DNA of 32,268 nucleotides from Candidatus Woesearchaeota archaeon. GTDB lineage: Archaea; Nanobdellota; Nanobdellia; Woesearchaeales; GW2011-AR9. Positions 3,893 through 23,242 of the stretch are shown here, one piece after another (positions within the stretch are counted from its first letter, which is position 1; every line of letters begins with the position of its first letter). Where the stretch lies: positions 1 to 32,268 of the forward strand of contig JAGVYN010000001.1 in the NCBI GenBank assembly GCA_018303265.1. Direction: 5' to 3'. The notes beneath the pieces were generated by a model. The model did not search any database, was not told the origin of the DNA, and saw nothing but the letters and a program-made list of their open reading frames with translations. The translations under genes and the position numbers were made by a program.

Positions 3893-4697
3893 ATGCCTGA
3901 ATTGCCAGAAGTCGAGACCGTTGTGAGACAGTTACAAAGAAAAATTCTGGGAAGAAAGATTGTCAAGATTGATATCAACGATGCAAAAGTTATTGACAAG
4001 AACGTAAAACAGTTTCTACGACAGCCAATTAAGAGTATAGAAAGAAGGGGAAAAGCGATTATTATCTCTTCTGATGAAAAGTATCTCGTGGCTCATTTAC
4101 GGATGACGGGGCATTTTTATCATGTTGAGAGGGAAGAAGAAAATAAAGGAAAGGAAAAAATAAAGAAAATAAAGAAAATAAAAGAAGGTGATTATCGAAA
4201 ATATCTGTGTGGAATATTTTACTTAGATGATGGTTCTTTTTTTACGTTTAATGAAATACGAAGGTTCGGCGGCATGAGATATATGAACAAACGACAATTG
4301 CAGTTGTTTCTTCAATCTCTTGGAAAAGAACCATTGAACATAAAGAAAGAAGAATTTGTGGAAAAACAAGCTTATGGATCAAAGAATAATTGCCGGGATT
4401 GGTAATATTTATGCCCAGGAAGCGTTGTATCACGCAAAGATTAATCCACAACGAAAGATACAAGAGATTTCAAAAGAAAAGTTAGCCCTGCTTCATACCA
4501 AATTACAGAAAATTCTTACATTGGCAATAAGAAAGAATGGAACAACAGTCAGCAATTACAACCATCTTGATGGAAAAGGTGATTTTCAGGACTTTTTAGC
4601 AGTGTATCAGAAAGTATTTTGTCCGCAAAAGCATTCTCTTAAGAGAATCATTGTTGGCGGAAGGGGAACATATTATTGTCCGCGGTGCCAGCGATAG
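3893..4697 (+). pseudogene. mutM: Formamidopyrimidine-DNA glycosylase (Fpg/MutM), frameshifted
   Basis: MPELPEVETVVRQL... start in frame 2; LMDQRIIAGIGNIYAQEAL...IIVGGRGTYYCPRCQR in frame 3 from ~4360; the frames join near 4350-4375. Confidence 0.85.
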
Positions 4698-4773: not shown

Positions 4774-5471
4774 TTTTGAAGATCTTTCACCTTCCCAAAA
4801 TCAAACACTTCTCCTTTGTTTACAATATACACTTTAAAAGTGGCGATATCTTCCAGAAAAGGGCTTAATACTTCTTCTTTCAGAATATCTGTTCCTTCCA
4901 ATAAAGGATTGAAACTGGGCACGGCAATCAACTCTTTCCGTTGCCATTTCCCTTTGAGAAAGCATTTATACTTTTCCCATTTGCTTCCTTCCCTCATTGT
5001 TATGGCCGGATGCTCGTGCCCGATAATAATTCTTGTAGCCTTTGTTTCCATAAGCTCATCGCCGTGAACAATAAGCGTATCATCAACACTGTATTCTGTT
5101 ACAACGGCAACCCTTCTTTTTTCCGCAATGGGGGCAATGATAGGATCATGATTTCCTTTGATAATAATTACTGTTTTGCATTTTTGCAAGACAACATCAA
5201 GGAATTGTAAAACTTCTTTCCATTCCTGTTTCAATACTGTGCCAAATTCATGTTTCAGATCGCCGTTGATAATCACTTTTTCTGGCTTTGTTTTTTCTAA
5301 AATATGTTCTAGTTTTGTTATAATTTCTTTTAGTTGAAATTTTGGTACGAGAATCCCCTTTCGCTGCAATACTTCTTCATATCCAATATGGAGATCGTTG
5401 ATGATAAGAATATTTTGTTTCTTGAGCCATAATGCCGTTTCGATAATTTCTATGCCTTTTGCTATCTCCAT
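4761..5471 (-). CDS. Metallophosphoesterase, SbcD-related archaeal type
   Basis: INDLHIGYEE, INGDLKHEFG, KGNHD and GHEHP motifs in order. Confidence 0.88.
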   Translation of the reverse strand: MEIAKGIEIIETALWLKKQNILIINDLHIGYEEVLQRKGILVPKFQLKEIITKLEHILEKTKPEKVIINGDLKHEFGTVLKQEWKEVLQFLDVVLQKCKTVIIIKGNHDPIIAPIAEKRRVAVVTEYSVDDTLIVHGDELMETKATRIIIGHEHPAITMREGSKWEKYKCFLKGKWQRKELIAVPSFNPLLEGTDILKEEVLSPFLEDIATFKVYIVNKGEVFDFGKVKDLQKRAK

Positions 5472-5527
5472 TTTCGTTCTTGGTGAAAGAAATCTTTATA
5501 AATCAATTGTTTTAATTACTTTGACAT

Positions 5528-5638
5528 GCCCCCGTGGCTCAGCGGTTAGAGCGGACGGCTGTTATCTTTATAGAAAGATACCGTCAGGTCACCAGAGGTC
5601 TTGCAAGAGACCGGTGAATTCAAATCTGGTCGGGGGCG
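5528..5638 (+). tRNA. tRNA-Asn(GTT) with two introns (5565-5579 and 5596-5618)
   Basis: Acceptor GCCCCCG/CGGGGGC; D-arm GCTC/GAGC; anticodon stem GACGG/CCGTC with loop CTGTTA^A; T-stem ACCAG/CTGGT and loop TTCAAAT after removal of the 23-nt insert; TTTATAAA upstream near 5492. Confidence 0.85.
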
Positions 5639-5702
5639 CATTTTTTGATTTTATGTATTATTCTTGATTTAATGTATTTATGTGATTCATATTATGTGGT
5701 TC

Positions 5703-6722: not shown

Positions 6723-6917
6723 GGCCCCATAGCTTAGTCTGGTTGAGCGCTGGTCTTATATGATCACTGATGGAACAGAAATAGCAAGCCATTAGCTGCC
6801 TGGAAAGCCAGAGGTCCTGAGTTCAAACACAGATCTCCCAGATCTGGTAGGGGGATTCGCGGTCACTGCGTTCCCGCTCATAAGGTTTGGGTGTCTTTGA
6901 AAGTCTCGGTGGGGCCA
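6723..6917 (+). tRNA. tRNA with two introns; anticodon not certain (Ile(TAT) if the anticodon-loop intron is at 37/38)
   Basis: Acceptor GGCCCCA/TGGGGCC + A73; D-arm GCTT-AGTCTGGTT-GAGC; anticodon stem CTGGT/GCCAG; variable AGGTC; T-stem CTGAG/CTCGG interrupted by ~76 nt at about 6828-6903. Confidence 0.72.
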
Positions 6918-22967: not shown

Positions 22968-23242
22968 TTAAGGGCACGCCCGCAGTCGAAACACTGAAGC
23001 TTCGTTAGTATACCCCGACAGCTTCTCAGGCTTGCGACCCTCTGAACATCACAACCTCCGCTTAGGGCTGCTCCATTCCTGGCCTGACCCGGTTCACGCA
23101 AGCGCAATCCCAGAGGACAAACCGTCGGCAAAGACAGCCAGGACCAACAAAACAACAATGGTCCTTCCTTGGGCTTCGGCTCCGTGTAAAGTCCATTCAC
23201 GGTAACAACGCAGGACTAGCGCGCCAGCCTAGCTTACCTTCA
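22968..23242 (-). ncRNA. Signal recognition particle (7S) RNA, ends approximate
   Basis: Minus strand GCGTGAACCGGGTCAGGCCAGGAATGGAGCAGCCCTAAGCG matches the SRP helix 8 domain (GGAA tetraloop, AGCAG asymmetric loop); GC-rich in an AT-rich region. Confidence 0.9.

What the first reader, a model, noticed from the sequence alone, without database searches (positions are those of the whole stretch)
5596..5618. tRNA-Asn carries a second, 23-nt intron in the T arm with a near-textbook bulge-helix-bulge
Read straight through, the T arm does not fold. Removing 5596-5618 leaves a perfect T-stem ACCAG/CTGGT with loop TTCAAAT. The flanks form central helix CACC (5590-5593)/GGTG (5613-5616), bulge AG^A (5594-5596), intron helix GGTCT/AGACC, and bulge AA^T (5617-5619). 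This predicts splicing at 53/54. A separate 15-nt insert (5565-5579, TCTTTATAGAAAGAT) sits at the canonical 37/38 site, so one short tRNA gene would have two introns. Multiple non-canonical tRNA introns are best known from Thermoproteales; here the neighbourhood looks DPANN-like.
Basis: partly seen in the sequence, partly recalled or inferred. Interest (0 to 1): 0.8.

Follow-up and report, generated by a model that had tools for sequence, protein, structure and literature searches.

The report
Two-intron tRNA-Asn in a Woesearchaeote
A transfer-RNA gene in an uncultured DPANN archaeon is interrupted twice, and relatives lacking exactly these pieces show both are real introns; the type is known, but this lineage carries many such introns with only the simplest form of the enzyme that removes them.

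Summary
tRNA-Asn(GTT), 5528-5640 (+), carries two inserts: 5565-5579 (37/38, 15 nt) and 5596-5618 (53/54, 23 nt). Relatives G002 and G021 lack the 23 nt to the base, G005 lacks both inserts, G199 has only the 53/54 insert and G022 has both, several at the same syntenic locus. In three genomes the 53/54 intron differs in sequence but keeps the same register: invariant bulges AG^A and AA^U, a 4-bp central helix with compensatory changes, and a different but complementary intron helix. An intron of the same design sits at 53/54 of a CAT tRNA in G016.

One correction: the motif is relaxed, not textbook. The outer helix is missing (HBh'/bulge-helix-loop).

53/54 is an already described position, so the intron is a new member of a known kind. 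What is less expected is the setting. The genome is a Woesearchaeote whose tRNAs are full of introns, including non-canonical ones. Its family encodes one Methanocaldococcus-like (alpha4-type) EndA without the Crenarchaea- or ARMAN-specific loop that published work ties to relaxed-motif cleavage. The next tRNA in the window carries a 76-nt T-loop intron that is multicopy and probably mobile. Splicing itself has not been shown: no RNA data were available.

The parts
5495..5502 (+). TATA box TTTATAAA, about 30 nt upstream of the tRNA
   Evidence: Sequence; TTTA(T/A)A at about the same distance upstream of tRNA-Asn in most relatives
5528..5640 (+). Precursor tRNA-Asn(GTT) gene with two introns (G5528 = base 1; discriminator about 5640)
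   Evidence: Rfam RF00005 37 bits; cloverleaf after removal of both inserts
5565..5579 (+). Canonical intron, 37/38, 15 nt (TCTTTATAGAAAGAT); central helix 3/4 pairs, outer helix = anticodon stem
   Evidence: absent from G005, G013 and G199 tRNA-Asn, present with other sequence in many relatives
5596..5618 (+). Non-canonical intron, 53/54, 23 nt (AGGTCTTGCAAGAGACCGGTGAA)
   Evidence: Exact empty site in G002 and G021; same site with covarying helices in G022 and G199
5590..5593 (+). Exon strand (CACC) of the BHB central helix; part of T stem and variable loop
   Evidence: Pairs with 5613-5616; compensatory CGTC/GACG in G022 and G199
5594..5596 (+). 5' bulge AG^A, cleavage between 5595 and 5596
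   Evidence: AG^A in all four 53/54 introns found
5597..5612 (+). Intron helix GGTCTT/GAGACC with loop GCAA
   Evidence: Folded; different but complementary helices at the same site in G022 and G199
5613..5616 (+). Intron strand (GGTG) of the central helix
5617..5619 (+). 3' bulge AA^T, cleavage between 5618 and 5619
   Evidence: AA^T in all four 53/54 introns found

Best explanation
5596-5618 is a genuine archaeal tRNA intron at position 53/54. In the precursor, exon bases 5590-5593 pair with intron bases 5613-5616. The two bulges flanking that helix are cut after their second base by the tRNA-splicing endonuclease EndA, and RtcB joins the exons, which restores T stem ACCAG/CTGGT and loop TTCAAAT. 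The 37/38 intron is removed the same way. It follows from the sequence that the unspliced T arm competes with the BHB fold (exon bases CACC are held by the intron), so the intron must leave before the T arm can form. Shown by comparison: the insert, its exact boundaries, and conservation of the pairing. Inferred: cleavage by EndA, ligation by RtcB, order of events. The intron belongs to a lineage-wide proliferation of canonical and non-canonical tRNA introns in this Woesearchaeota family. That proliferation is served by one alpha4-type EndA, which would therefore have to accept relaxed motifs lacking the outer helix.
For: Exact empty sites: G002 and G021 match query bases 1-68 and 92-112 on adjacent bases, and G005 lacks both inserts. 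Independent presence or absence: neither in G004, G005, G013, G037; 37/38 only in nine genomes; 53/54 only in G199; both in G000 and G022. Compensatory changes at the same site: central helix CACC/GGTG versus CGTC/GACG, plus unrelated but complementary intron helices; shuffles reach the register in 1-5 of 200,000. Same architecture at 53/54 of a CAT tRNA in G016. Conserved synteny: the metallophosphoesterase gene is adjacent in 14 of 22 relatives and the small downstream ORF in 13. Conserved TATA box. RtcB present. EndA gene present once in 58 of 60 relatives. Only one tRNA-Asn found in the assembly.
Against: No RNA data. The motif is relaxed (outer helix 0 bp), and published alpha4 enzymes are reported not to cut such motifs efficiently (PMC6379350). 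The EndA gene of this very assembly is frameshifted by a perfect 61-nt tandem duplication, which is unresolved. The genome is 83% complete, so an intact second tRNA-Asn cannot be excluded.
Confidence: 0.93

Rival explanations
1. The gene is a decaying pseudogene that picked up an insertion in its T arm; another tRNA-Asn does the work.
For: The genome is only 83% complete; there are no expression data.
Against: Everything outside the inserts forms a perfect cloverleaf with a conserved TATA box and synteny. No other tRNA-Asn was found. The insert carries an in-register BHB, and the same design is at the same site in two other genera.
Confidence: 0.03
2. The 23 nt stay in the mature tRNA as an enlarged T arm.
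For: The unspliced T arm folds into a stable hairpin of its own.
Against: Retention would destroy the T stem-loop and elbow. Relatives without the insert have the ordinary T arm at the identical boundary. Bulge sequences and the central helix are conserved, whereas hairpin sequence and length (20-29 nt) are not.
Confidence: 0.02
3. The insert is an assembly or sequencing artefact.
For: This assembly has a suspicious perfect 61-nt duplication in EndA.
Against: The insert is not a duplication of flanking DNA, and comparable inserts occur at the same position in independently assembled genomes G022, G199 and G016.
Confidence: 0.01
4. The intron is spliced, but by an EndA unlike alpha4: a hidden second subunit (an alpha-beta-type enzyme) or the lysine-rich N-terminal extension gives the broad specificity.
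For: Relaxed motifs are thought to need (alpha-beta)2 or epsilon2 enzymes (PMC6379350, PMC12397907). The family's EndA carries a variable, often Lys/Glu-rich N-terminal extension absent from M. jannaschii EndA.
Against: A profile search of seven nearly complete genomes at E up to 10 found only one gene each. Searches with both Pfam domains found one gene per genome, bar a few weak PF02778 partial hits.
Confidence: 0.25

Closest known systems
Non-canonical archaeal tRNA introns of Thermoproteales and other Crenarchaeota (Sugahara 2007/2008, reviewed in PMC4090602)
   Same: BHB-type introns outside 37/38, including the listed position 53/54; two or three introns in one gene; related intron sequences in different tRNAs
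   Different: Host is a Woesearchaeote; EndA is a single alpha4-like gene without the Crenarchaea-specific loop, instead of (alpha-beta)2 with it
Nanoarchaeum equitans and ARMAN-1/2 intron-bearing and split tRNAs (PMC4033280, PMC12397907)
   Same: DPANN hosts, non-canonical introns with relaxed motifs
   Different: N. equitans has a two-gene (alpha-beta)2 enzyme and ARMAN a three-unit epsilon2 enzyme with the ASL; this family has neither in the searches run
EndA of Methanocaldococcus jannaschii (alpha4, 1A79)
   Same: Best solved-structure match of the family's EndA, E 6e-35, aligned over 28-199 to 2-171 with about the same loop length; catalytic Tyr/His/Lys motifs conserved
   Different: Family EndA has an N-terminal extension; alpha4 enzymes are described as restricted mostly to strict BHB, yet the tRNAs here carry many relaxed motifs

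Membership tests
Archaeal BHB tRNA intron | Removal restores a complete tRNA | tested here: met
   full cloverleaf, anticodon GTT
Archaeal BHB tRNA intron | Orthologous genes lack the insert exactly | tested here: met
   G002, G021, G005 and others
Archaeal BHB tRNA intron | 4-bp central helix with two 3-nt bulges cut after the second base | tested here: met
   with compensatory changes across genera
Archaeal BHB tRNA intron | Strict hBHBh' motif (both flanking helices) | tested here: not met
   Outer helix 0 bp; relaxed HBh' type, which is an accepted subtype for non-canonical introns (PMC6379350)
Archaeal BHB tRNA intron | EndA and RtcB encoded in the genome | tested here: inconclusive
   RtcB intact. 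EndA present, but frameshifted by a 61-nt tandem duplication in this assembly; intact in nearly all relatives
Archaeal BHB tRNA intron | Excision seen in RNA | not testable with these tools
   No transcriptome held
alpha4-type EndA | Single EndA gene per genome, one N and one C domain | tested here: met
   PF02778 and PF01974 in one ORF of about 175-275 aa
alpha4-type EndA | No CSL or ASL insertion | tested here: met
   About 8 residues between FG and ELSL; about 6 in 1A79. In the same segment 3ajv/3p1z have about 9 and 2zyz about 12 residues more (alignment coordinates)
alpha4-type EndA | Homotetramer | not testable with these tools
   Inferred from gene number and size only
Thermoproteales-type intron-rich tRNA set | Host lineage Thermoproteales with (alpha-beta)2 EndA carrying CSL | tested here: not met
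   Window protein matches Candidatus Woesearchaeota; EndA as above

The most novel reading that the evidence does not exclude
A Woesearchaeota family has independently reached a tRNA-intron load of the Thermoproteales kind, including relaxed-motif introns in D, anticodon and T arms and mobile T-loop introns. It would process them with a single-gene alpha4 EndA that lacks the specificity-broadening loops, an exception to the accepted EndA/intron coevolution rule.
Probability: 0.55. Interest if true: 0.7.

Novelty: new member of a known kind. Interest (0 to 1): 0.52.

Why it matters
The intron adds a lineage, not a new kind of intron. It matters because it turns an accepted rule (only EndAs with the CSL or ASL loop handle relaxed introns) into something testable: here are single-subunit, loop-free enzymes with natural relaxed substrates, near neighbours that lack each intron, and a mobile intron family. 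It also warns that tRNA finders miss such genes. ARAGORN found no tRNA in the window and the first-look filter of the genome search missed this tRNA-Asn, so tRNA sets and completeness scores of Woesearchaeota are probably underestimated.

Tried and rejected
A paper search for DPANN tRNA introns plus splicing endonuclease gave nothing relevant, and a paper search for '53 54' gave no hit although PMC4090602 lists the position. The 23-nt intron core is not repeated elsewhere in the genome: only matches with 3 mismatches, and the reversed control gave more. An eIF2-gamma tree does not group the 53/54 carriers, but single-gene resolution is weak, so repeated gain and repeated loss cannot be told apart. 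My intron solver failed on several of the most disrupted genes, so intron counts are incomplete. Pattern hits in other genomes that I read (L091, L094, L095) were not tRNAs; the rest were not inspected. The core of the T-loop intron had no exact match in viral contigs.

Full report
What is there. The + strand at 5528-5640 encodes tRNA-Asn(GTT) with two inserts. Rfam's tRNA model covers it with both inserts as insertions (37 bits); ARAGORN finds nothing in the window. Removing 5565-5579 and 5596-5618 gives a complete cloverleaf. A TATA box (TTTATAAA, 5495-5502) lies about 30 nt upstream and is conserved in most relatives.

Is the 53/54 insert an intron? The strongest evidence is comparative. 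Against the precursor, G002 and G021 match bases 1-68 and 92-112 on adjacent genome bases, so precisely 5596-5618 is missing there. G005 lacks both inserts exactly. I read tRNA-Asn in 23 genomes of the order, G000 included. Neither insert: G004, G005, G013, G037. 37/38 only: nine genomes. 53/54 only: G199. Both: G000 and G022. Others carry introns at 59/60 (G014, G016, G017, G047), at 30/31 (G003, G033), or in the D loop with 37/38 (G023). One gene thus shows introns at five positions across the order. The flanking genes are the same in many of these genomes, including G022, G199, G002, G005, G013 and G021.

The motif. Central helix 5590-5593/5613-5616, bulges AG^A and AA^U, intron helix 5597-5602/5607-5612. 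G022 (26 nt) and G199 (29 nt) have other intron sequences at the same site, with central helix CGTC/GACG and fully complementary intron helices; the bulges are identical. Shuffled introns reach this register in 3, 1 and 5 of 200,000 trials. Substituting the intron strands of G022 or G199 for that of G000 leaves 2 of 4 central pairs. The exon-side outer helix is absent in the 53/54 introns, so the motif is the relaxed HBh' or bulge-helix-loop type rather than a textbook BHB.

A 53/54 intron of the same design also sits in a CAT tRNA of G016. Its intron helix (GGTCT/AGACC) is the same as that of the window's intron, while its central-helix strand matches its own host tRNA. This hints at transfer between tRNAs, but one short match does not prove it.

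Host. The window's eIF2-gamma is 74-84% identical to Candidatus Woesearchaeota proteins. The genome (G000) is 866 kb in 50 contigs and 83% complete.

Intron load. In the 15 G000 tRNA genes for which my script found a full cloverleaf, 14 have introns: 20 in all, 11 at 37/38 and 9 elsewhere (D loop, 30/31, 53/54, 59/60); tRNA-Ser(CGA) has three. This sample is biased, because two of the genes were fetched through their introns, and incomplete, because the most disrupted genes were not solved. For comparison, 0.84 introns per tRNA gene is reported for Thermoproteales and 0.21 overall (PMC8450103).

Enzyme. 58 of 60 relatives have PF01974 matches, one EndA gene each; the two without are 82-89% complete. 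A profile search at E up to 10 in seven nearly complete genomes finds no paralogue. The protein aligns end to end with M. jannaschii EndA (1A79, E 6e-35) and has an extra N-terminal extension. The loop where ARMAN's ASL and the crenarchaeal CSL lie is about 8 residues, and the catalytic motifs are conserved. Reviews state that only (alpha-beta)2 and epsilon2 enzymes cut relaxed motifs efficiently and tie this to the CSL or ASL (PMC6379350; PMC12397907). The rule is not absolute: Methanothermobacter is listed among archaea with multi-intron tRNAs (PMC4033280). RtcB is present. G000's own EndA contains a perfect 61-nt tandem duplication that breaks the frame. I cannot say whether that is real, but its tRNA genes need an EndA, so an assembly error is the simpler reading.

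Known or new. Position 53/54, multiple introns per gene and relaxed motifs are all described for Crenarchaeota and Nanoarchaeota (PMC4090602). I found no account of Woesearchaeota tRNA introns in the held library, which is open-access papers only. So: a new member of a known kind, in a setting that challenges the EndA rule.

Beyond the coordinates. The tRNA at about 6723-6916 (anticodon probably UAU) has a 76-nt intron at 59/60 (6828-6903). It is 83-98% identical to copies in the T loops of different tRNAs: six in G000, three or four in G014, two in G032, one each in G005, G008 and G195, and one weak in G011. All 12 copies I read lie in T loops. Its 3' end (TGAA/CGAA-AG) pairs with the T-loop bases TTCA/TTCG, so the T stem supplies the outer helix in any tRNA, which makes a near-universal landing site. 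It has no Rfam match, a conserved two-hairpin fold, and occurs in 7 of 353 genomes of the order, all in one family. Patchy spread with high identity suggests recent mobility, like the intron transposition reported in Thermoproteales (Fujishima 2010, cited in PMC4033280).

Verdict. Splicing remains inferred.

Noticed in passing
window 6828-6903 (+), in the tRNA at about 6723-6916: 76-nt T-loop (59/60) intron with a conserved two-hairpin core, multicopy: 6 copies in G000 and copies in at least 5 other genera of the family (83-98% identical), each read copy in a T loop; probably a mobile tRNA intron with a near-universal landing site; no Rfam family.
   Followed up: partly
window about 6723-6916 (+): Second disrupted tRNA of the window, probably tRNA-Ile(UAU), with a further insert of about 45 nt in the anticodon arm; its exact splice sites were not resolved.
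   Followed up: partly
G000:C13:12325-12446 (locus L069): Perfect 61-nt tandem duplication inside the EndA gene shifts the frame; real or assembly error unknown.
   Followed up: partly
G016 tRNA with anticodon CAT, C2:438811-438957 (L158): Another 53/54 intron, with the same inner helix GGTCT/AGACC as the window's but a central helix fitted to its own tRNA: possible intron transfer between tRNAs and genera.
   Followed up: partly
G000:C47 about 5300-5540 (L114): tRNA-Ser(CGA) with three predicted introns (D loop 27 nt, 37/38 74 nt, 59/60 76 nt).
   Followed up: no
window 3893-4697 (+): A protein starting MPELPEVETVV (looks like formamidopyrimidine-DNA glycosylase) is split over two overlapping frames, so it is frameshifted or carries a sequencing error.
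   Followed up: no
window 22971-23239 (-): Archaeal SRP RNA, 110.5 bits.
   Followed up: no
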